Below, piece by piece: positions 9,101-60,915 of a stretch of 64,000 bases of DNA. Source of the DNA: Periplaneta americana (Eukaryota; Arthropoda; Insecta; Blattodea; Blattidae). The stretch covers positions 171,713,244 to 171,777,243 of the forward strand of contig NC_091128.1 of NCBI RefSeq assembly GCF_040183065.1, in the 5' to 3' direction. Positions within the stretch are counted from its first letter, which is position 1; every line of letters starts with the position of its first letter. The position numbers were made by a program, and so were the translations under genes. The notes beneath the pieces are model-generated. The model was not told the DNA's origin and did not search any database. It saw nothing but the letters and a program-made list of their open reading frames with translations.

Positions 9101-12100
9101 CGGTAACGCCGGTAGTGGCAGGAATGTGAACTGTTTGGAAATACGTACTGTCGGGATATGGGGAGAGGGTTAAGACGATTACTTACGTATTTGTTGACAT
9201 TAACTTCGACGGTCAACATGGACACGGAGCATTTGATTTGTGTTGTGGAATGTTACCGTACGCAACTGATGATAACAAATACCCTGCGTACGACTTGCCG
9301 GCGCAAAACACAGTTCGAAAGAGGTTATGGTAGCATATAGACCGTACAGACCGCCATCTGTTGCTACGACGTTCAAGTTATACCGTACACGTTCTCAAGT
9401 TCGGATTGAAGAACGCCTTAAATAATAGGCAACTTCTCTAACATTTAAGCTGAAACTCACTTCAAATCGGTGACCCAACAACAGTGACGTCATGACACAC
9501 TTTGAAATGAACACCCAGTATACCTTCTGAAGAAGTATCTACATTTTTTTGTATCTACATGGAAGTCATAACTCAAAATCACCAATTTCTGACTTATGTC
9601 GCACACCATAGATATTTACTAATCATATGCTGTTTCATCACAAGGAATCCTATCACAATCAAGTCAATAAATCACAGTTGCTTAAATACAATTTATGTAA
9701 TCAACATAAGTGAAATTGTGTATCAATTTAATTTTGAAAATTGTTCTTGTGTTGTAGAGCAATAATAAACTAGAGCTGACAGAACAGCTGCAACATGAGC
9801 AGCACGTTTGCAAAGAGCAGAGTGAGACGCTGGCCCAGCAAGAGCAGGAACTGACTGCATTGAGGTGAACACATACTGATTGTTCTGTTTTAATATGTAA
9901 AATTGCTTTCAATTGGGCGTTAAGTAGTTCACGAATTTCTGCCCTCTTCTGTAAATCACAATGAAATTCTTCTCATTCTGCAGGGTTTCTATGACTCCTT
10001 TTTGAAGCGAAAAATATAGTCTCTATTCGTATTTTCTCTCTCTTTGCTCTCAAAAAAAGCTGAAAGATAGAATTTATAAAACAGTTATATTACTGGTATG
10101 GTTGTTCTGTACGTTTGTGAAACTTGGACTCTCACTTTGAGAGAGAAACAGAGGTTAAGAATGAATAATTTCAAGGAAAAATTGTTTGTGAAACTTGGAC
10201 TGTCACTTTGAGAGAGAAACAGAGGTTAAGAATGAATAATTTCAAGGAAAAATTGTTCCAGGGCCGGGTATCGATCCCGGGACCTCTGGTTGAATGTACC
10301 AGCACTCTCCCAACTGAGCTACCCGGGAACTCCACCTGACACCATCTCAACTTTTCCCTTTATATCCACACAACTCGCGTGGGCTGACAAAATGCCAGAG
10401 ACCCACATCGAGTGCACACAAACTCTGTGTGACTTGGAATTGTGGTTTTCTGTTAACGTACACAGTGACGTATATGTTATGCAAATACGCCAGAGACCCA
10501 CATCGAGTGCACACAAACTCTGTGTGACTTGGAATTGTGGTTTTTTGTTAACGTACACAGTGACGTATATATTATGCAAATACGCCAGACACCCACATCG
10601 AGTGCACACAAACTCTGTGTGACTTGGAATTGTGGTTTTCTGTTAACGTACAGCCCACGCGAGTTGTGTGGATATAAAGGGAAAAGTTGAGACGATGTCG
10701 GGTGGAGTTCTCGGGTAGCTCAGTTGGGAGAGCGCTGGTACGTTCAACCAGAGGTCCCGGGATTGATACCCGGCCCCAGAACAATTTTTCCTTGAAATTA
10801 TTCAAATCTGCTTTACAGGGAGCTTCACCTGAAAGACTAGATTTGCAGAGGTTAAAAATGTTTGAGAATAAGGTTCTTAGGAAAATATTTGGGGCTAAGA
10901 GGGATGAAGTTACAGGAGAATGGAGAAAGTTGCACAACGCAGAACTGCATGCATTGTATACATCACCTGACATAATTAGGAACATTAAATCCAGACGTTT
11001 GAGATGGGCAGGGCATGGGTTCGCGAGCATTAGCAACTAACTTAACTAATTAACTGTATCTAATTTTATTTGCATTAGATCTTCCATCAAATATTAATGT
11101 CTGTAAGTAAAAAAGAAAAAAATCACAAATTTTATTGAGTAAATATTCCTCTTTTTTATTTATTGTACAGTTTGGTATAAACCTTGATATGCCTGGCAGT
11201 CGCCTCCATCCTTTTTTATTTTTCGCCTTTCTAAACCATCTTTCGAGCCTAAGGGATTGATTTCCTTGTTACCTAATGACGTGCTTGTATGAAGTCTGAC
11301 ATATTATTGGTGGTTTTGCAGATCTGAGCTGTTGGAAAAAGAGCAACTGCTTCAGCAATACTCAAATCAGATGTTACAGCAGAATCAAGTTGCAGAGTTC
11401 GTCAGTCATGAGGCTCATGGACAGTTGAATGAACTGCTGCAGCAGGAGTTGGAACAAGCCAAGGTATGCCAGCCAGTCTAAAGGAAGGAAGAAGTAGTGG
11501 TGATTATTGAGAAGAAGTGATTTATGATATGATATGATATGATATTTATTAGTCAAACAGCATCTATCATGTCATGGTATATCTTCACATTCCTGTATTT
11601 GCGAAATACCATAACTCATCATTACGTTATGCAAATCCCTGTAAAGCGGGTTTGAATAATTTCAAGGAAAAATTGTTTCGGGGCCAGGTATCAATCCCGG
11701 GACCCTTCGCTTAGCACACGAATTCTCTACCAACTGAGCTACCCCAGAAACTATACACGACACCGTCACAATACCTGAAAGCCAGATTTGCATAATATAT
11801 TCGTTACTGGTGGTACGTTAACAGGAAGCCACAATTTAAGTCACACAGAATTTGTGTGCACTCAAAGTTGAGTTCTGGCATCTTGTCAGCTCATTTGAGT
11901 TGTGTGGATATAAAGGAAAAATTGTGAATGGTTTAATAGAGATTATGTGCTTAGAAGTGCACTGCATGGAAAGTGCAGTCTGTGCATCACACTATTATTA
12001 GTAGCAATTAGTTAATATATTGATCATAATATGTTGTTGTTGTTGTTATCTAATGCTGGGCTTTGGCAACGAAGCCATTAGCGTTCTTGCTCTCCAATAT

Positions 12101-13351: not shown

Positions 13352-16300
13352 TTTTATTTTAGCTGGCAGAGTTAAGGCCATAAGGCCTTCTCTTCCACTC
13401 AACCAGCCTTAATTAATGCAATACATATTTAAATTACAAATATTTACACTACACTTAATAGGTTCTCCAGCAAAATTCTTCAATTTTAACGACTAGTAGA
13501 CTACATATGTATTTATTTAAATTTAGATAAACCTATAAGGTAAAGTAGTAACTTAATTTATGAGCTAATTTAATTCAATCAATTATAATTAATTTAATAT
13601 TTGAGATAGCTAGCAAAATGATGAAAATTAATTTAATATAAGCTTACTAGGTATGTAAAACACAAATATAAACCAAATGTAACCTCCGGATGTAGAGGGT
13701 CCAGAGCATAATCAAAAAGGATCAATAAAAACTAAATTACCCTGTCAAGTCCTGTATTCGATAAAAATCTGAGAATTGCATTTCCGCAATTAAAATCATT
13801 TGCAAAAGCATCACACAGAGTCGGCCAAATTTCATATTGTTGACGGTCACTATCGTATTTTCTACAATGCAATAAAATATGCTCGACCGTAACTGGTACA
13901 TGGCATACCTCACACTTCGGTTGAGGTTCGCCATGTAGGAGATGGCCATGTGTCAGATGACAGTGGCCAATCTTCTTTCGGGTGAGTAAAACTTCTTCGT
14001 GTCGTGATGCTCTTGTGGACAAATCCCAAACTCGAACAGTATTCTTTATAATAATTTCGAGGGAAAAATTGTTCCGGAGCCGGGTATCGAACCCGGGACC
14101 TTTGGTTTAACGTACCAATGCTCTACCACTGAGCTACCCGGGAACTCTAACCGACACCGATCCAATTTTTCCCTCTATATCCACAGACCTCAAAGTGGGC
14201 TGACAACCGTCAAGCAACCAACTTCGAGTGCACACTAACTCCGTGTGACTTAAATTGTGGTTTTCTGTTAACGAACAGTGACGTGTATTATGCAAATCAA
14301 GATTTCAGGTATAAATCCCTGTAAAGTTGATTTGAATAATTTCGAGGGAAAAATTGTTCCGGAGCCGGGTATCGAACCCGGGACCTTTGGTTTAACGTAC
14401 CACTGATCTACCCAGGAACTCTACCCGACACCGATCCAATTTTTCCCTCTATATCCACAGACCTCAAAGTGGGCTGACAACCGTCAAGCAACCAACTTCG
14501 AGTACACACTAACTCTGTGTGACTTAAATTGTAGTTTTCTGTTAACGAACAGTGACGTGTATTATGCAAATCAAGATTTCAGGTATAACTCCCTGTAAAG
14601 TTGATTTGAATAATTTCGAGGGAAAAATTGTTCCGGAGCCGGGTGTCGGACTGTGGATATAGAGGGAAAAATTGGATCGGTGTCGGTTAGAGTTCCCGAG
14701 TAGCTCAGTGGTAGAGCGTTGGTACGTTAAACCAAAGGTCCTGGGTTCGATACCCGGCTCCGGAACAATTTTTCCCTCGAAATTATTCAAATCAACTTTA
14801 CAGGGAGTTATACCTGAAATCTTGATTTGCAGTATTCTTTATACTTCGTAATTTGTTTCCCTCTTGTGCAGACCATTCTCCTTCCCATTGCCACCCATAA
14901 TTTACATGATAGAGGATATTGTTAAAGCAACTAATACATATAATTTTGATGTTAAATCTTACCTCATTTATAATTATATTACTTTTTTTCGTGTTTAATA
15001 TAGTTATTTCAAATTTTACTTTTCTCCATTCATTTTAAGGAACACAATCAAGCTCTAAGTACACAGAATCGCGAACTTCGGACACTGTTAGCACAGCAGA
15101 GAATACACGATCCAGGCAGCAGCAGTGGGGCTGTGAGTTTGGATGATGCAAGCATTCGCAAAGATGAAACTTTGGCCACGCTGTCTGCTAGCGTCAAACA
15201 GCTTCAAGAAGAGCGTGATCAACTCTTGGAGAAGCTGAAGCAACAGGAACAGCAAAACTCAGTGCAGGAAGATTCCTCAGGTACTTGTGCGCCTTTTCTC
15301 TTCATTACTTACAAGAAGGACTCTGATTTTGATGACCTGAAGTTGTTACAAAATGAATAATGCTGAAAGTCTAAATTAAACTACTTCAAATTTACAAAAA
15401 TTGACAAAAGAAATGTGAACAAATTATATTCATTTTTTGTCATAAAATTCTAAACCTTTATACCAATTCTGTTTTTTGTTGTTGAATTCTTTCTGTGAGA
15501 TTGTCCTTTCTATTCTATTTCATATTTCTTTCTTTCTGACCAAGTTTTGAATTGTTCTTTTTATTCTGCTAATACTACCGATTACTTTTGGTCAGAATAG
15601 TGTCCTTTAAGACTTTATAACCTGTCACCCATCACAAAATGACTCTTTATTTTAAGTAAATGTTGATGACATATCAATTTCTCTTCAAGCTCCCGAAGTT
15701 TTCAGTAAGAAAACGAATGAAGAAGAAATTCCAAAAGATTACGAGTCAATGAAGGTAGCAATGGAGCAGCTGGAAGAGAGATTTACGAAAACAATGAAAG
15801 AAGTTGCAGATCTAACTGACGAGAAGCAGAGATTGGAACATCTTGTGTTGCAGTTGCAAGGAGAAACAGAAACAATTGGTAAGACACTGTATAAAAATTG
15901 TCCAGATGAAATATCCACTACCATTATGTAGCAATGTTGTTTTATCATATAAAACTTTTGAGCTGGCAGGTAAAAATGTGACAAATTAGTTAAATCTTAA
16001 GGTACGGTCACATGTCGGTACTTTTGCAGAGCTACTTTTATACTGCAGCTGCAAAAGTTGCGTGTCGTGTTCACACGTAAGCCAAAAGTAGCGCGCTGCA
16101 CGCTACTTTTCGTGCTGCGCAACCCGAGTGCAGCAAAAGTTGCAATTGGAGGTTGCGAGTCTGTTCACACACAAGGCGCTACTTTTGCAGCCGCAATCAT
16201 GCTGCAGGTTCCCATCTCCGTGTTGACTTCTCAATATACATTTTGTGGTTATGTTCGCATTATTAAGAAACTCATGCGAAAGCTTCCTTATCTATTATTT

Positions 16301-24969: not shown

Positions 24970-25667
24970 CATCAGTCAACCTGGGTAGTGTAGTCAGTAT
25001 AGCTTGGCCTTCTGTGCTCGAGGTTGCAGGTTCGATCCCTGCCCAGGTCGATGGCATTTAAGTGTACTTAAATGCTACAAGCTCATGTCAGTAGATTTAC
25101 TGGTGTAATCTCTTTGTTAATCTATCCTTTGCTCTTAAAAGAAGAAGAAAATCAGACAACTTTTTCTATGTGGAACTTCATTACATTTGTAAAGTTTCTT
25201 TCAACCCATAAGCAGTGCTGACTAGATCAGACGCTATAGACAGTACTCTGTAACAGAGTCGCCAGTATGAAAGGATAATTCCAAGCCTTTGGCGTGAGAC
25301 GAACTCGATAGCTCAGTGGTAGAGCGCCTGACCGGAAAACAGGAAGTCGCAGGTTCGTTTCCCGCTCGAGGTTGTGAAATTTTTCTTTCATACCATGGCA
25401 TGATTGTGACTATAATAGTATTTAAATTCATTAGATTTACTGGCATGTAAAAGAACTGCAGGACAAAATTCCGGCACATTGCTGATATAACTTTGGCAGT
25501 TGCAAGCGTTGTTAAATCATTTTTTTTAATAACCATCCGAAACTTGTCAGAAACTTTTGTGGATAAATTCATGAAACCTCTACTTGTAATGTAAGGAAGT
25601 TCCACATAGAAAAAGTTGTCTGATTTTCTTCTTCTTTTAAGAGCAAAGGATAGATTAACAAAGAGAA
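24970..25667 (+). mobile_element. Two tRNA-headed SINEs between inverted arms
   Basis: A first head (about 24983-25056, B box CAGGTTCGATCCCTGCC) and a second one (about 25295-25371, TAGCTCAGTGGTAGAGCGCC and CAGGTTCGTTTCCCGC). The second has the 'gattttactggcatgtaaa... gctgatataactttggcagtt' body known from cockroach-type SINEs. An 83-bp inverted repeat (25111-25193 and 25585-25667) encloses the second SINE, so a palindromic sequence was probably split by it. Confidence 0.65.
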
Positions 25668-35099: not shown

Positions 35100-38000
35100 G
35101 TGAGTATTTAACCTTTCGTGTAACGTCATTTCATCATGCTCATTTTAGTTTTAGTGTGTTAATAATATGACATTGTTTACACCAGGTGGGCGATTTTGTT
35201 CTCGCATCCATCAGATTTCACACCTGTATGTACAACTGAACTTGGACGTCTTGCTAATTTAACGTCCGAATTTGAAAAACGTGGAGTAAAAATAATTGCA
35301 TTATCCTGTGACCCTGTTGATTCTCATCAGAAATGGATTCAGGTAAGGAGAGAGTAGTCGTTATGTTTGAACACCTTCGTAGTAGTGGCTTCTGGTTAGA
35401 TGCTTTCAAAGATTGAATGACAACGTGTATGTAATTGATTTGCAGGATATTAAAAGCTATGCCAAACATTCTGGCGAAGGTTTCCCATATCCTATAATTG
35501 CTGATGACAGCAGGAAATTAGCTGTGAATTTGGGAATGTTGGATCCCCTGGAAAAGGATAAGGATGGCCTTCCTCTGACATGCCGAGCTGTATTTATTAT
35601 TGGACCAGATAAGAAACTTCGCCTCTCAATGCTGTACCCAGCAACTACAGGACGAAATTTTGAGTAATGTCTCTTATATTAATCAGTTATGAGTGTACTC
35701 TAATTCGAATCATGACCGAAGTAGAGAATTGTTGGTTTTGTTTTAGATGACTAGTTGTGTTAACCACCAAACTGTCTATGAAACTTTGTGTTGAGCAGGA
35801 ATGGTTGTTTTTAGCTGGTGAAAAAAGTTGCGCAGTAGTGCAATGCAGCAGGTATGAAATACCTGATACTATAGGGTGTTCAAAAAGCCACTCAACACTA
35901 TAATCGCATGTAATTGTTGTCTTTTATTTCTTTGACAGTCTATTTCCCAAGTGCTACAACACACTGAACTGAGCAGACTTTTTCTTTTGAGGGCACCTCA
36001 AGATTGCTACCAACGTTACTCCGGGATTACAATATAATATTCTGAACTTTATCATTGCCATCTCATGCCAAATATTTTTTAGAACATGATTAAATGCGTC
36101 CACTTGTGTTAAGCACAGAACGGCAGCTACTTCCAGCACTTACTCTAAAATAAGTGTTTTCCCATAGGGTTGCATGCCTTTCTGAACACACTGTAGTAAA
36201 TAAGTTTAAGAGTTGGTAATAGTTTATGACGTAATGGCTTCGGATTTGTTGATGTGTATGGCTACCAAACTAAAAACTGTTGAGTTTGGAATGTAGTCTT
36301 GAACACTATTGATAGACTTTATCATTTTGATAGCAGATATAACTATCAGAAAATTTAATTGCTTTTCATTTATGGAGCAGTTTAATTCTTGTTTTTATTT
36401 GATAGCGTTTTATAGTACTGGCATTCAACTGGGGGTATGTTAACCCCCATGGAGGTAGGCGAAGACTTTATAAGGGATACGTAAAATTTTAAATAAGCAT
36501 ATATGTTTCATGAATGATCAGAGCTAATGATTGGATTACAAATCCATTGTCCACCACAGCCATCAATTCCTCTGAACTTCCCGTAAAATTTAAAGAAAGT
36601 TTGCTAGAAATGTCGTCCATTGATGGTGTATTGAAAATAAAATTAGAAAACTTGTCAGTTTGTGACTTAAAAAGAGTGGAACATTCATCTCGCCGCATCT
36701 CAAAATTGAGCTTTCTTTCTGGCTTCTGAGATTAGTCGTGTTCTCTGTCTTGTACAGAATTGAGGAATATTACACATAACAGCTGACAAGCTGCTGATAG
36801 TGCATTAGAGATGCAGGACGGGACAAGAGTTATTATAGAAACTTAATCAGATGTTGTCACTTTTAACCTGATCAGTGTTGCCAATTCGTTTATGAGTAAT
36901 TATCATAAATTTATAATCTTATATCAGGAACTGTCAGAAGTCATTCGTGATTAACCAATATGACAAACAGTTCTGCAATAGGAGGGTACTGAACTTTGTC
37001 TTGTTCAGGGTTTGTACAGACAGGCTTGTGCCAAAATTCATTCTTTCCAGTGTGAAATTTGGTTCTACTTCGCATTCACTTGTCTAGCTTTTATATATAT
37101 TATTTTAATGTACCGAAGTACATATGATATTTCCATGCAGATATTCTGCGTCATCTTATGATGAAAGAGTAATGGAAAGGAGAAAAATTCTCTCCGGCGC
37201 CGGGATTTGAACCCGGGTTTTCAGCTCTACGTGCTGATGCTTTATCCACTAAGCCACACCGGATACCCACCCCGGCGTCGGACAGAATCGTCTCAGATTA
37301 AGTTCCAACCCTTGGGTTCCCTCCAGTGGCCGCCCTCTGCACTATGTCATAGATGTCTATGAACGTAGGACTGAAGTCCATTCCATTACTCTTTCATCGT
37401 ATGATGACGCAGAATATCTGCATGGAAATATCATATGTACTTCAGTACATTAAAATAATATACATGATATGCGTAAATCACTTCATGATTTAAGACGGTG
37501 CTTATTCCGTCGGATCCCGGCCAACTAGTCACTCATAACGAGTGCACCTCAGCACATGTGTGGACTTCAGTCCTACGTTCATAGACATCTATGACGTAGT
37601 GCAGAGGGCGGCCACTAGAGGGAACCCAAGAGTTGGAACTTAAAACTGAGACGATTCTGTCCGATGCTGGGGTGGGTATCTGGTGTGGTTTAGTGGATAA
37701 AGCATCAGCACGTAGAGCTGAAAACCCGGGTTCAAATCCCGGCGCCGGAGAGAATTTTTCTCCGTTCCATTACTCTTTCATCGTTGTCTAGGTTTGTTAT
37801 CAATCCACATTCATTATGAGCAATTTCACAAATACATTAATTGATATGGCAAATTCTGCATGTGTACACATATCACACCCATATCGCAATGTTTAGTATT
37901 CCATATGGTTGACTTCCCCTGGCTGTCTGGAAAATATCAGGTGTGGGGACTATGTGTGGAAAATATAAAGACTTGCCCACTCAAGGAAAATAGAGACCAA

Positions 38001-41000
38001 CTGTAGTACAAAATAGTATATATTTAAGTGTCTGAGACAAAATCAAAAAACCATAATAGTATTTGAGATAGCAGTATTCTAGTAATAAGTAGCTTTATTT
38101 TAGAGCTATTGTTTGAACAATTCCAGCAGGACACTATATCTTTCACTATCATGTTGCTGTTATTGTACAGATTGGCAACACTGAATGTAATTTAAAAAAT
38201 AAAAGGTGTTTATTACTTTTCAGTGTAGGTGACCAGTTTGCATTAGTCACATTATTCAGGTACCAGTAACTGTAAAAGTAATTCATGTGCTGTTAGCCTG
38301 TTTAGTTATACAAAGTGAGGGACCAAATTAGGTTCTTTTGAGGGATGAATCAGGGCAGTGAGTTAGACACAGAAGTCTAATATAAATTGTGGGTTTTGCG
38401 AACAGGTTTTGAGAAAAATAGCACTTTTAGTTTAATTTTAATTTGCGTATTTTAGGAAAATTGATGTTGGACAGGTGATTTTGGGGGATGTTGTAGAGCA
38501 AATACTAACAAATGCGGGCTTTATTGGTTTGTTGCATGACATTGATGGTTTGACCGTAATTTCATTGATTATTGATAACAAAGTGTGTGACAGGAAGATG
38601 TGGCAACAGTGCATTCAGTGATAGTACAGTGAAACCTGTTCAAATTGGAACCTGAATAATCCGAAAACCTGTCTATTTTGGAACAATTTATTGGTCCCGC
38701 CGAAATTCATATGTATTATGTGTAATTTTTCCTGAATAAAACGGAAACTGTCCAACGCGGAAACGGAAACTATCTGCTACTGTTCAAAACGGAAATAATA
38801 TTTTGGACACACTACTGTAATGTAAACTATATTTTGAAACAGTATGTGCTTTCAAGGAATGTACGAAATACGTAGGTCACTAAGATAAAAACAAGTTTTC
38901 TTTGTAAAATTTTTGAGGGTGCGAGGGTGTGTTGGCCTGGTGGTCATAAATTTTATTACCCTATTGACTAGGCAGCCATGTATGGTGGGTCCCTATCACC
39001 ACGGCATGGCGCGTCCTCAGGTTGCGGATAGAGGAGACGGCCTCCAGATATGGAGGGTAGCTGCGAATATATTGAATAAGCAGTCGTGGACAGCCGATAA
39101 GGGGTGGTCCTCCAGCTTGGGGGTTGGGCGAAGGGCTAACAACCCATCACCGTAAAAAACAGCTTGTTACGAATTCCTACAGTAAGCCTCGGAATAGGAC
39201 TGATTCTCTGGCACGACCACAGCAAAGGAATAAGGTTTTGAGATTTGGCACTGATGCTTTTCCAATTCACTGCGGGCTAAAGCAGGGAGATGCACTATCA
39301 CCTTTACTTTTTAACTTCGCTTTAGAATATGCCATTAGGAAAGTTCAGGATAACAGGCAGGGTTTGGAATTGAACGGGCTACATCAGCTTCTTGTCTATG
39401 CAGATGACGTGAATATGTTAGGAGAAAATACACAAACGGTTAGGGAAAACACGGAAATTTTACTTGAAGCAAGTAAAGCGATCGGTTTGGAAGTAAATCC
39501 CGAAAAGACAAAGTATATGATTATGTCTCGTGACGGGAATATTGTACGAAATGGAAATATAAATATTGGAGATTTATCCTTCGAAGAGGTGGAAAAATTC
39601 AAATATCTTGGAGCAACAGTAACAAATATAAATGACACTCGGGAGGAAATTAAACGCAGAATAAATATGGGAAATGCGTGTTATTATTCGGTTGAGAAGC
39701 TCTTATCATCCAGTCTGCTGTCCAAAAATCTGAAAGTTAGAATTTATAAAACAGTTATATTACCGGTTCTTCTATATGGCTGTGAAACTTGGACTCTCAC
39801 TCTGAGAGAGGAACATAGGTTAAGGGTGTTTGAGAATAAGGTGCTTAGGAAAATATTTGGGGCTAAGCGGGATGAAGTTACAGGAGAATGGAGAAAGTTA
39901 CACAACACAGAACTGCACGCATTGTATTCTTCACCTGACATAATTAGGAACATTAAATCTAGACGTTTGAGATGGGCAGGGCATGTAGCACGTATGGGCG
40001 AATCCAGAAATGCATATAGAGTGTTAGTTGGGAGACCGGAGGGAAAAAGACCTTTAGGGAGGCCGAGACGTAGATGGGAGGATAATATTAAAATGGATTT
40101 GAGGGAGGTGGGGTATGATGATAGAGACTGGCTTAATCTTGCACAGGATAGGGACCGATGGCGGGCTTATGTGAGGGCGGCAATGAACCTTCGGGTTCCT
40201 TAAAAGCCATTTGTAAGTAAGTAAGTAAGTATTGACTAGGCAGACGAGTCCCTTCAAAGATGTTCAATGCTTCACTCCTGTGTACTGTCGTAGCTGGGTA
40301 GAACGCAAGTGTATTAGTGATTTCGTGATAAAAAAAGTAGCGTAAAAATGTTGCACCATCATTAACTGATGAAGTAAAAGTTATCGAGGAAAATGAGAAA
40401 CGAAGCATATGGAAAATAATGTTGAAATTTAGGAATGAAAATCTCAGGTGTAACTTAACATTTTCAAAAATAAAGGCCGTATCATGAGTGAGTGGCTTGC
40501 GGTCAATAATGGTGACATGAAAGGAAACAGAAAACATCTGGTTACATAGAAATAAGTGAACTGTTGTGGGAGTGGATTCTTCTTGCCCTTTCAAAGATAA
40601 TGCCAATTTCTGGACCCATTCTGCAATGCAAACCCTTGAACTGGCAAAGAAATTAGATAATCCAGAATTCAGGGCTTCTATGCTGCTAGTCCAATTAAAT
40701 AATGTGTTGTGATATACAGAGGTGTGAAAATTATTAGAATAATCTTAATTTTAAAGGTTTTTTAATAGTTCCTTCACAAATATTAATTGAATTGATGGAT
40801 ATTGGTATATATTACTATACTGATGTAGGATATATTTACTACTAACAATGCCGGAAAGCATTGTTGTACATTGGTATTTTTCTTATTTTACAATTGTTAT
40901 GGGAATTCAGAAATTATTATATTATGTTGGCGGAATTGGAAACATAAAAAATTATATGCACAAAACAGATGTATACGTTCATTTGAACCTTCACAACAAT

Positions 41001-44000
41001 GTAAACGCAAAGAACCATTTGTTTAAAGCATTTCTTAATTAATTTTTGATGTTTCCAATTCCGCCAACATAATATAATAATTTCTGAATTCCCATAACAA
41101 TTGTAAAATAAGAAAAATACCAATGTACAACAATGCTTTCCGGCATTGTTAGTAGTAAATATATCCTACATCAGTATAGTAATATTATATACCAATATTC
41201 ATCAATTCAATGAATATTTGTGAAGGAACTATTAAAAAACCTTTAAAATTAAGATTATTCTAATAATTTTCACACCTCTGTACAGTACAGTATTATAGTA
41301 TAGTGTTAGATATTAAATTTAGTGTACTTAATGAACTTTACAGTGCTTAATGAGTGAGTTACGATACAATTTATACAGGAAATGAGATTTTCATCAAGAT
41401 CATTCACCAATTAAATAAGCGACAGGAAGCTGATTTAATGTCAGTAGTGGTAAACGGAATATTTTGTAATTCCTACAATTTGCGGCATGCCATTTTGTTT
41501 TTCATTTATACAAATGATAAACTATTTCATTTTAACTTCACACCTGAATAACACGGAACCCTGTCCACAACGGAAAAAAAATTAGGACCGTGTCACTTCC
41601 GTCTTGAACAGGTTTCACTGTAGAAGCAAGTCGGAAGCAAGAATTGAATTGAATTTACGGGAGGGGGACACCGTGGTCCACCACTGCGACCTGTTACGAT
41701 CTATTACACTAACCCTCAAGTAGGTGCATTGCCGAGTCTACACTGGCTGACTACACTAAGGTTCACTGCATACCCAGGTTTCGAGCAGACAACCCCCCTC
41801 GTCTCTAGGCCAGTCTCCTCCATGTGTTGCCAGCCAGAGATCGGGGAATGCTATGGAATGATGACGAAATGGTGACGGATTGATGTAGATGGCTAATATG
41901 GGAAAAATGGAAGAACCCCGAGAAAAACCCCAACTGCGACCTTGTCTGCCACAAATGTCTATTGATTTTTCAATGAAAAATCCCAGACCTGACCGGGACT
42001 CGAACACGGGCCGTCTGCATGACAGGCTGGAGGTCTGACCATTCAGCTACTGCAGGGTAAGTCGGAAGCAAGACTAGAGCTGGGAGGAGGAAATGCACAG
42101 CCACCAATGTCCCTCTGTGATGTGTTAGGTTGCTGAATCTTTCGTGCAGTTGTGTATATTATGATTTTATTGTCTTGCGATTCACATGCTACTGTTATGT
42201 GAACATGTGCTGCAATTTTCCATTTGCTTTCATTTGTATGAATATCTCAAAGAACGTTCACGAATGACCACAATGATATTAGGAATCAACAAACCCTTTT
42301 ATGATATTAATGAGTTTTTTAATGTTAATGTTGTAGAGTGTTTCTGATACAATTTTATTGTTTTTTAATGCCTCTGTTGTTTATTTTCTATGTATTGACT
42401 TTGTTAATTGCACAAATTTGTGTTCACTGACTGTACGATACTCAATATATACTTTTGTGCGAGATCGTGCGTATTTGCTTGCTTTCCGCACAAAACCAAT
42501 ATGCGGTAAGTGTGAAATACCACATTCAGTATTCCCAACGTAACACACATAACAATTTCCCTATTCTTACCGCTTAAGCATCATATTCATTTTACTGCTT
42601 TAGGCTTTTAACATATTATTTTTAAAGACGTTCAATATAGTAATAATTATAAATTGGAAACTTACCACTGCAATTTCACCTAAACTGCACTGTTAATTAT
42701 TGTTTTTAAATATTTGCAAAAATTAAGTAAACTCTACAACACTACAAAAGTTATTGCATTTGTAATGCAAGTAACATTATGGAAGCCGTGAAAAAATCAA
42801 CAAGACCGGAAAAATTAAACTTGCCAATGTTATTACTGCAATATGTTATATAAATAATATTGTTAAAATATTAAAATGAAAAATAAATGATTACATAACC
42901 TTACCGTTTGTTTTAAGTTCGCATTTATAGACTGGGGAAAAAAAAAAGACAGACGTATATCACGGGCTGCTGCAGTATAGTAAACACAGAAAACATTTTA
43001 TAGGAACAATATTGAAGATAGATATATTTGTTTTCCAAAGTTGCCGTCATTGAACAGAAACCAAGATGGAGATTTCATTGCAACTAATTAGAAATTCCTC
43101 TTTCAGGTATGTAATAAACGATCTTCGCACAAAATAATGTACGATACACGAGCGGTATGTTTGTTTTCATGTTCTCGGAAATTAAAAAAGCTCAACTACG
43201 TTTCGCTTTTTCAATCTTTTCCTCGAACATGAAAACGTCAACATACCGCTCTTGTAACGCATATTACTATTATGTTTAACTTCCGTCCCTGATTCATCTC
43301 TCAAAAGGATCCTTATTATTCCCCTGTATTTGAGTCTTCTTACAAATATCCGTGACTTTTGGGAAAGTTGACTGACTGGAAGAAAGAGGTGGTCAGGAAA
43401 AATTGAATGGTGGCAACAACGCATCTCAACAAGCAATAGAATAGTATTTATTGATTTAGGTACTTATTTACATATAAACATAGCATAGTGAATAATGAAT
43501 TTGTCAAGAGACCTAAACATATTTTGAGTTTTCGTTTAATGTGTTGTGGTACTGTTTATGCCTTATTATCTGTCTTATAGCGAAATCCTCCGTGTAGTTG
43601 ATTCCCTTCAACTCACAGAAACAAAGAAGGTTGCTACTCCAGCTGACTGGAAGGTAAGAGTGAAATCGTAATACTTATAGAAAAAATGAACTTTAAACAA
43701 TCCGTGCTAATATTGCCATTAAAATATTCCTTGGAGAGAAATAATAAAACTTGGGAAAAAGTACATAGTTCAACACAAATTAAAAAAAAAATCATTGTTC
43801 AGAATTATTTAAAAATTGAAATATGTAATGAGATCCCAAGTGCATTACTTACTAGGCGTGTGATCAATAGTAGGCCTACTGAAGAAGCAATTCATGAAAT
43901 TCTGCTCTTTCAGTTTATCTTTTAATTGACCTGTAAGCATTATGTTTCTTTGCGATTTATAGATTACAAAATCCATATCTATTAGTCCACAGTCTTTTCG

Positions 44001-59317: not shown

Positions 59318-59863
59318 CTGGAAAAGAACAAGTATTATTAATACAAGTAAGCACAAACAGCTCTCTGAGAATGGAGAGGAGCCACTATTGAAATTTCACA
59401 TACAACATCTATTTATATTATCGACGATGCTGAGCTGCTAAACTTCAGGAATTGATACAGACTGTCTGCTGAATAAAATAACGTTTTTTCTATCTCACTT
59501 TCAGTTTGATGTAATGTGGGTAGCAGTCACTCAGCAGACCATTGTCTTCATTTTAATCTTTGGACGGTAACAACTAACATAGAACATGCAGAAATCGGAT
59601 TCTGTATTAAATAATTCTGATAAAGATAAAGTGTTGCCCTCATGAAACACCTCACCTCTTCATGGGTAGTTAGGGGATTGCTTTGAGGGCTTGTAAATGA
59701 GAATATTTTATAGCTTTCTGTTTCAATACTACTAAAATAATAAATGAAACTATCAAAATATAAATAAATTTGATAATATTTTTCATAAGTTTAGTTGTGA
59801 AAAAAATATTTTTTCATGGGCCGATTTTTTTTAGGTGCAGTATTTTCAGATATTCTTTTGGCA

Positions 59864-60042
59864 TAGAATAACTCTTCTCGGGTTCTCAGCCAGGTGAGTT
59901 GGAGATTAGCTTCCAAGCTTTCGACGGCTAGCTCTGCCATCTTCTTCAGGGACGAAGTGAAGAAGATGGCAGAGCTAGCCGTCGAAAGCTTGGAAGCTAA
60001 TCTCCAACTCACCTGGCTGAGAACCCGAGAAGAGTTATTCTA
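59864..60042. repeat. Perfect 85-bp inverted repeat with 9-nt loop
   Basis: Arms 59864-59948 and 59958-60042 are identical reverse complements as far as I can read, around 'gggacgaag'. The right arm read forward contains AELAVESLEANLQLTWLRTR. It resembles a snapback copy of a retroelement end. Confidence 0.92.
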
Positions 60043-60915
60043 CATCAAACGCCGGAAAGCCTCAAGTCATACATTCTTTTGGCAGTCCTGTCGTCTGAAA
60101 GTCCTGTTAATTCTGGTGTTTTATTGTAGCTTATTTTATTTATTTTTATGTAATTTTGTTTTTTTATTCATTTTATTTTTTAAATTATATCATTTTAAGT
60201 TATTTATTGTTTCGTTTATTCTGTTCTTTTAAAATGACCAAAGAAGTGCATTTAGGGAGGCTATAAGGGTACTTGAAAATTCGTATTGTAGTCTCTGACA
60301 GGGTTTCTACTCCATCACCCAGAAAGGAGGGTCGTAGTATTAGGATACACGGTCACATCTTCAAACGCGGTTAAAGTCAAGCCATACCTCGCCTTCCGCA
60401 CTCTCCCCTGTCCAAAACTTCACTGCTAGAAAAAGCCGTTTGCTGTAAGATATTTGGATGGTTCCTCGGAAAGTATTCCTAAGGTCTGAGATGTGCAGTG
60501 GCGACAACTCACGAACAGAAAGTGGAAGTTTGAAAAGATTATTACGTCGGGACGCATTAAAAATCAAAATCTAATTAAAATGTTTTCTATCCTCAGAGGC
60601 ACGAAATTAAATTGTAGGATCATCCTCATATCCCTCATGGAGAAATCGCCACTGAACGTGACAGAGAAGCAAATAATTAATTTAAGCTGCCAATGTTTCA
60701 GTTAAAAGTAATTTTATTTTCAATCTGTATGCTGTGCATGGTGATTGGTACCGGGTACAGTAACTGTTGAGTTGTGTGTATAAAGACGCGAAAAGTGCTT
60801 CAGATCAAAATGAGTGATTCTCCTCCTAATGAAACAAAGAGGACGTGTTTGTATTTAGAAACATAAGACATTTATTTAATAATTTGTACTCGTATGAACA
60901 CAAGCTTTGCAATTA
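60043..60915. other. No gene recognised
   Basis: AT-rich. Open frames on both strands at about 60361-60705 have no family I recognise. No exon of the Prdx6-like gene was found here. Confidence 0.4.

What the first reader, a model, noticed from the sequence alone, without database searches (positions are those of the whole stretch)
10235..14829. Inverted pairs of tRNA-like units that inserted as single blocks
Two separate blocks (10235-10845, 14051-14829) each contain a minus-strand tRNA-like unit followed by an inverted plus-strand one. Each block as a whole is bracketed by a direct repeat of 15 and 14 bp in the interrupted LINE. SINEs normally insert as single head-to-tail units. Here the unit that moved seems to be a compound with inverted ends, in one case with an extra tandem copy and in the other with a 95-bp minisatellite in the centre. 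The junction sequences are seen directly; that the pair is itself the mobile form is inference.
Basis: partly seen in the sequence, partly recalled or inferred. Interest (0 to 1): 0.75.

Follow-up and report, generated by a model that had tools for sequence, protein, structure and literature searches.

The report
tRNA-bearing Penelope-style retroelements, remade inverted
These paired tRNA-like repeats in what is probably a cockroach genome are single insertions of a mobile element that is laid down as an inverted pair, freshly made each time, in the way known for Penelope retrotransposons rather than for ordinary SINEs.

Summary
Both blocks are inverted (head-to-head) pairs of tRNA-Asn units, bracketed by 15- and 14-bp duplications; for block 1, intact copies of the interrupted LINE show the empty site. 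The "solo" unit is itself a truncated inverted pair, and a tRNA-Tyr pair at 37092-37783 has the same anatomy. In 42 distinct insertions, one outer end carries a 42-nt hairpin tail and the other lacks it in 36 of 36 with both ends intact (6 have one truncated end). Inner junctions differ from copy to copy. The two arms of an insertion are on average closer to each other than to arms of other insertions, and no base separates the two arm types. So the pair is not the propagating form: one RNA source is copied into an inverted pair at each insertion. Fixed ends, one-sided tail, 11-16-bp duplications and head-to-head order match published Penelope-like insertions; the genome has GIY-YIG elements in the same geometry. 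The helper was not identified: the two Penelope copies read share no sequence with the units. Direct tandem and single units exist too (2 of 3 Asn places in a 200-kb structure-blind sample). Best reading: non-autonomous tRNA-bearing elements mobilised Penelope-style; a new variant.

The parts
10220..10234 (.). left target-site duplication of block 1
   Evidence: cagaggttaagaatg
10235..10845 (.). block 1: inverted tRNA-Asn element
10256..10328 (-). tRNA-Asn-like sequence, left arm of block 1 (no tail beyond it)
   Evidence: Rfam tRNA 42.5 bits; ARAGORN
10389..10652 (-). internal 'body' repeated three times (95-bp period; third copy shortened)
   Evidence: (family D3)
10651..10804 (+). right arm of block 1: leader, tRNA-like part (not called by ARAGORN or Rfam), T5 run
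   Evidence: inverted repeat I1
10803..10845 (+). 3' hairpin tail, present at this end only
10846..10860 (.). right target-site duplication of block 1
11636..11927 (.). 'solo' unit: truncated inverted copy, minus arm then plus body arm
14037..14050 (.). left target-site duplication of block 2
14051..14829 (.). block 2: inverted tRNA-Asn element with a tandem minus unit
14071..14143 (-). tRNA-Asn (GTT), left arm
   Evidence: 58.3 bits
14357..14417 (-). second, shortened tRNA in the tandem minus unit
   Evidence: 27.2 bits
14694..14766 (+). tRNA-Asn (GTT), right arm
   Evidence: 58 bits
14788..14829 (+). 3' hairpin tail, this end only
   Evidence: fold z -4.5
14830..14843 (.). right target-site duplication of block 2
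37080..37091 (.). left target-site duplication of the tRNA-Tyr pair (12 bp, one mismatch)
37092..37783 (.). third inverted pair, tRNA-Tyr (37192-37263 minus, 37679-37750 plus); tail at the left end only (read by eye)
37784..37795 (.). right target-site duplication of the tRNA-Tyr pair

Best explanation
A non-autonomous retroelement that works like a Penelope-like element (PLE). One unit of about 285 bp consists of leader, tRNA, a T5 run with about 20 nt more (together the counterpart of a pseudo-LTR), a 42-nt hairpin tail, and a body. Its RNA, probably from a tandem source, is bound by a PLE-type protein that cuts both target strands; reverse transcription starts on each cut strand at one of two fixed sites that flank the hairpin. 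The two cDNAs run towards the RNA's 5' part and are joined head-to-head by end joining or microhomology. Shown: fixed outer ends, one-sided tail, duplications, variable junctions, common origin of the two arms. Inferred: the enzyme, both-strand priming, and the tandem RNA.
For: Outer ends: 34 of 34 insertions with both ends assignable have the tail at exactly one end (24 on the arm without body, 10 on the body arm; Fisher P 7.6e-9; 6 of the 40 had one truncated end); L071 and L072 add two. Duplications over threshold in 33 of 40, 31 of them 11-16 bp, and 13 and 15 bp in L071, L072. Junctions variable with short overlaps or extra bases. Arms share one source. Published PLE anatomy: inverted pLTRs, tail of 31 bp on one of them, 8-10-bp duplications (PMC3846280); a PLE protein cuts and extends both strands, and starts at two sites in a stem-loop region that define the tail (PMC11167929). 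The same genome holds GIY-YIG elements (108 matches in a capped list); the 10 pairs of listed matches within 11 kb of each other are all in minus-plus order (read by eye); one has arms of at least 1105 bp at 99.7%, and one locus has an 801-aa open frame with a reverse transcriptase domain. The family was recently active: five other places are 100% identical to the 138-bp query from the right arm of block 2.
Against: No sequence is shared with the two PLE copies read (best E 0.25-0.39), so no helper is identified. No hammerhead ribozyme was found. The Pfam scan of the 801-aa frame did not list GIY-YIG at E up to 0.01, although the genome search placed it in that frame. Of the three Asn places in the structure-blind 200 kb only one is a clear inverted insertion. 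37 of the 42 distinct insertions were found with a query spanning a junction, so junction positions and the share of inverted copies are biased, and that query also held the first bases of the tail on the arm without body; the outer end of the body arm was not in it, so the one-tail rule itself is not built in. Duplications were weak or absent in 7 of 40.
Confidence: 0.66

Rival explanations
1. A LINE-mobilised SINE that suffers twin priming (inversion of the 5' part during target-primed reverse transcription) unusually often.
For: Duplication lengths, 5'-inverted layout and short-overlap junctions fit; one LINE segment alone occurs 6 times in the random 200 kb.
Against: Twin priming (recalled from the L1 literature) puts the outer end of the inverted part at arbitrary RNA positions; here it lies at one of two sites in all 34 insertions with assignable ends, and the tail is strictly one-sided. 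No poly(A) or simple-repeat 3' tail was seen in the copies read.
Confidence: 0.17
2. The inverted pair is a mobile compound copied as such.
For: Shared outer ends; three junctions are each shared by two unrelated places, L010/L013, L030/L032, L042/L045.
Against: 36 distinct junctions among 39 independent insertions; no arm-specific positions, arms closest within an insertion on average. The shared junctions fall at short overlaps and may be coincidence.
Confidence: 0.07
3. A fold-back or MITE-like DNA element moved by a transposase.
For: Long inverted arms; MITE-like hairpins lie nearby (40708-41289).
Against: Duplication length varies, mostly 11 to 16 bp, ends are asymmetric by 42 nt, junctions and arm lengths vary.
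Confidence: 0.03
4. Independent single insertions plus local inversion or gene conversion.
For: Single and direct tandem units exist.
Against: One duplication brackets the whole block; empty site for block 1; the same layout in 36 insertions with both ends intact.
Confidence: 0.03

Closest known systems
Penelope-like elements (Adineta vaga Penelope, PMC3846280; anole Poseidon PAc, PMC11167929)
   Same: Inverted terminal units, most often head-to-head, a 31-bp (30-40-bp) tail on one of them, short variable duplications, direct and inverted arrangements, start of reverse transcription around a stem loop; other sequences between pLTRs moved in trans are reported in A. vaga.
   Different: No coding frame, a tRNA with T5 terminator inside the terminal unit, no hammerhead ribozyme found, no sequence shared with the two PLE copies read.
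Helenus, Ajax, Cassandra (TRIMp3; PMC10886601, abstract and passages read)
   Same: Small-RNA gene inside the terminal repeat of a non-autonomous element; the same evolutionary idea in LTR elements.
   Different: Helenus and Ajax have two LTRs and 4-5-bp duplications; here mostly 11-16 bp, inverted arms and a one-sided tail.
tRNA-derived SINEs of the German cockroach (PMC9191728, abstract and passages read)
   Same: tRNA-derived promoter, short, with duplications.
   Different: Those have poly(A) or simple-repeat tails; one dimeric SINE is described, none as an inverted pair in the passages seen.
L1 twin-priming inversions (recalled)
   Same: 5' part inverted, short-overlap junctions.
   Different: Outer end here is fixed and the tail is strictly one-sided.

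Membership tests
Penelope-like element | single frame with reverse transcriptase and GIY-YIG endonuclease | tested here: not met
   the unit is about 285 bp; a GIY-YIG motif scan of the window, L001-L008 and the 20 random loci gave one stop-ridden chance-like hit in L008 and nothing else
Penelope-like element | terminal units in inverted and/or direct arrangement | tested here: met
Penelope-like element | 30-40-bp tail at one of the inverted terminal units | tested here: met
   42-43 nt; 34 of 34 plus L071, L072
Penelope-like element | variable target-site duplication | tested here: met
   33 of 40
Penelope-like element | hammerhead ribozyme in the terminal unit | tested here: not met
   no hit at E up to 1, E up to 5 or gathering score over the window; not present in every PLE as far as I recall
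Penelope-like element | terminal sequence shared with an autonomous PLE of the host | tested here: inconclusive
   only two PLE copies read, in part; no match
tRNA-derived SINE moved by a LINE | pol III tRNA head at the 5' end | tested here: not met
   in blocks 1 and 2 the tRNA is followed at once by TTTTT and preceded by leader and body
tRNA-derived SINE moved by a LINE | poly(A) or simple-repeat 3' tail | tested here: not met
   intact ends are unit end or hairpin tail
tRNA-derived SINE moved by a LINE | 3' end shared with a LINE | not tested
   no LINE library searched
TRIM (Helenus type) | 4-5-bp duplication, direct LTRs | tested here: not met
TIR DNA transposon or MITE | fixed duplication length and matching ends | tested here: not met

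The most novel reading that the evidence does not exclude
A class of SINE-like elements, with tRNA genes of at least two kinds (Asn, Tyr), that depends on Penelope-like enzymes instead of LINEs, and whose perhaps tens of thousands of copies record, insertion by insertion, how both target strands are primed at two sites around one hairpin, always one site per strand.
Probability: 0.5. Interest if true: 0.8.

Novelty: new variant of a known kind. Interest (0 to 1): 0.62.

Why it matters
How Penelope-like elements make their odd inverted copies is an open question; short, abundant, young copies with clean ends give a statistical record of it, including a one-tail rule not stated this strictly in the passages I read. 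If the helper is a PLE, SINE-like parasites are not tied to LINEs. It also warns tRNA annotators: of 8 tRNA calls in 200 kb of structure-blind sequence, 6 lie in Asn- or Tyr-type units of this kind (L048 two, L052 two, L060, L066), and a seventh (L053) in a distant relative.

Tried and rejected
Mobile compound, MITE, independent insertions: see rivals. Pattern scans of viral and prokaryote contigs gave nothing. Clustering of arms on 20 loci alone was unclear before the larger test. Clustering of inner junctions near unit positions 175 and 25 looked like a fixed RNA 5' end; I dropped it, since the query itself had that junction and the copies found without it (B1, B2, L048, L071, L072) mostly end elsewhere. 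Asn and Tyr internal parts share no sequence beyond chance (203 of 300 shuffles as good). Rfam also listed microRNA families on the hairpins (MIR7533 at 53.8 bits, E 6e-9, against a gathering score of 230); I take these as hairpin likeness. Paper searches (listings) showed no tRNA-bearing Penelope-type element; short nonautonomous Penelope elements are mentioned for heliconiine butterflies (PMC6685494, passage). The library holds open-licence papers only.
Full report
What the sequence is. The window lies in an assembly of 3,231,669,367 bases in 91 contigs, which fits the Periplaneta americana assembly PAMFEO1 (3.23 Gb, 91 scaffolds, N50 188.1 Mb; PMC12774602, passages); the species is an inference from these numbers.

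Observation. Blocks 10235-10845 and 14051-14829 are inverted pairs of tRNA-Asn units bracketed by duplications of 15 bp (one mismatch) and 14 bp. For block 1 the interrupted LINE, with the block left out, aligns gap-free over the join to intact copies elsewhere, so the whole block entered at once; block 2 could not be tested so (no hits). The 'solo' unit 11640-11935 is also minus then plus. A tRNA-Tyr pair (37092-37783, 12-bp duplication with one mismatch) shows the same design with unrelated internal sequence.

Unit anatomy. In tRNA sense: leader with a TATA-like run, tRNA, AACAATTTTTCC and about 20 nt, a 42-43-nt imperfect hairpin (CAAATCAA..TTGATTTG in block 2; fold z -4.5; variants, some of which fold weakly), a body of roughly 100-130 nt, then the leader again; tandem period 285 (hits spaced 285 at two places). 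TTTTT follows the tRNA in most arms I read (not counted; L048 and L010 have one arm with it broken), so an ordinary pol III transcript should stop there; the moving RNA is probably a longer one (inference).

Genome copies. The query 11640-11935 gave 40 scored places of 4813 candidates, one being the window; the other 39 were fetched with flanks. With blocks 1 and 2 that makes 41 insertions, all minus arm then plus arm; since the query spans such a junction, this share is biased. Three of them (L028, L031, L036) share their flanks at 98.8% and are one insertion. Taking these as one and adding L048 gives 40; 34 have both outer ends assignable, and every one has the hairpin tail at exactly one end (24 on the arm without body, 10 on the body arm; Fisher P 7.6e-9; 6 have one truncated end). 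L071 and L072, the first two places after the window itself in a search with the arm alone, agree: 36 of 36. Duplications: 33 of 40 reach the threshold, 31 of them 11-16 bp, one 19 and one an uninformative microsatellite; 7 do not. Base composition of the duplications is 72% A+T against 65% in the random sample.

Junctions and arms. Among 39 independent insertions 36 junctions are distinct, with overlaps of up to 10 nt or up to 28 extra bases. For the arm test 42 loci were at hand; I dropped 8 beforehand (L031 and L036 as duplicates; L013, L017, L026, L040, L046, L047 with a truncated or short arm); 32 of the remaining 34 gave both arms. Arms of one insertion differ by 0.071 on average, arms of different insertions by 0.113; no permutation of 5000 did as well, also within the 29 of the solo subfamily; no site differs by more than 0.35 in frequency between the two arm types. 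An earlier look at 20 loci had shown that the nearest relative of an arm is often in another insertion, so the signal is statistical. Both arms then come from one source RNA and the pair is made at insertion.

Structure-blind samples. In twenty 10-kb stretches at even positions Asn-type units occur at three places: L048 2849-3447, an inverted insertion with a 12-bp duplication, 98% identical to the unit of block 2; L060, one unit with tail, no duplication found; L066, a direct tandem that ends in the tail, at most an 8-bp repeat. Tyr-type: L052 inverted with a 12-bp duplication, L050 a fragment, L053 a distant single unit. L053 also has a weak match to the Asn query and was not counted as Asn. 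Three places in 200 kb means roughly 50,000 in the genome, with wide error. Inverted copies are thus common but not universal, as in Penelope ('direct and/or inverted repeats', PMC3846280). The 44 rows also show, by eye, opposite-strand neighbours at five places and tandem spacing of 285 at two.

Mechanism. Published Penelope insertions have inverted pLTRs, a 31-bp tail at one of them, an inverted pLTR 37 bp shorter than the full ones in the example given, and 8-10-bp duplications, though some lack them (PMC3846280; passages and the Discussion read). A purified PLE protein cuts and extends both strands and starts copying at two adjacent sites that border the tail, in a stem loop; no difference in start site between strands was seen in vitro (PMC11167929; abstract, passages and main text read). 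The one-tail rule here is stricter than that last point would predict and is unexplained; a protein dimer with one site per subunit is my guess. At the tailed end the duplication of blocks 1 and 2, L071 and L072 begins with CA, which continues the unit (GATTTGCA), and at the other end the target meets AATAATTTC with 1-4 shared bases (by eye): priming by short pairing is likely (sequence shown, inference).

Penelope in this genome. GIY-YIG (PF01541) has 108 matches, 150 scored of 7669 candidates; the best one (C85) may be a different kind of gene. By eye, ten pairs of listed matches lie within 11 kb, all minus then plus, i.e. with 3' ends outward, and no close pair of another order is in the list. 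One (L068) has arms of 1105 bp at 99.7% around 185 bp; the arms reach the ends of the fetched stretch, so outer ends, tail and duplication were not seen. Another (L070) has an open frame of 801 aa, cut by the locus end, with RVT_1 at E 9.6e-15; the GIY-YIG match lies in that frame, but the Pfam scan did not list it at E up to 0.01, which I could not resolve. Neither copy shares sequence with the tRNA units, and no upstream-downstream terminal repeat was found in the parts of the second copy that I read. The helper therefore remains unidentified.

Judgement. It works like a Penelope-like element but lacks the coding frame, so it is not filed as a member. It is best called a tRNA-bearing non-autonomous element with Penelope anatomy. 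The nearest idea in print that I found is the tRNA inside LTRs of Helenus (PMC10886601; abstract and passages).

Noticed in passing
window 10220-10234; L041; L044: Block 1, L041 and L044 sit at the same position of the same LINE (agagRttaagRRtg), L041 and L044 in opposite orientation and with different junctions: a repeated target. The LINE site occurs 6 times in the random 200 kb.
   Followed up: partly
window 25104-25431: A tRNA-Ser unit inserted in another repeat with a 12-bp duplication (tagatttactgg at 25092-25103 and 25432-25443, by eye); its 5' part is a 99% inverted copy of 25588-25666, downstream of the insertion, as if local flank had been copied in.
   Followed up: no
window 10113-10254: A 71-bp direct duplication spans the left junction of block 1 (LINE plus the first 20 nt of the element).
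   Followed up: no
L046; L042: L046 carries the body in five tandem minus matches, L042 the tRNA part three times: the block 1 minisatellite is not unique.
   Followed up: no
L068 (G000:C15:136937600-136940000): GIY-YIG element as a head-to-head pair with arms of at least 1105 bp at 99.7%; nine more minus-plus pairs.
   Followed up: partly
window 40708-41289; 59857-60049: MITE-like hairpin ending in TACAGAGGTGTGAAAATT, and a near-perfect 92-bp palindrome.
   Followed up: no
L062: A run of many minus-strand open frames (up to 470 aa) in a random 10-kb stretch, unidentified large element.
   Followed up: no
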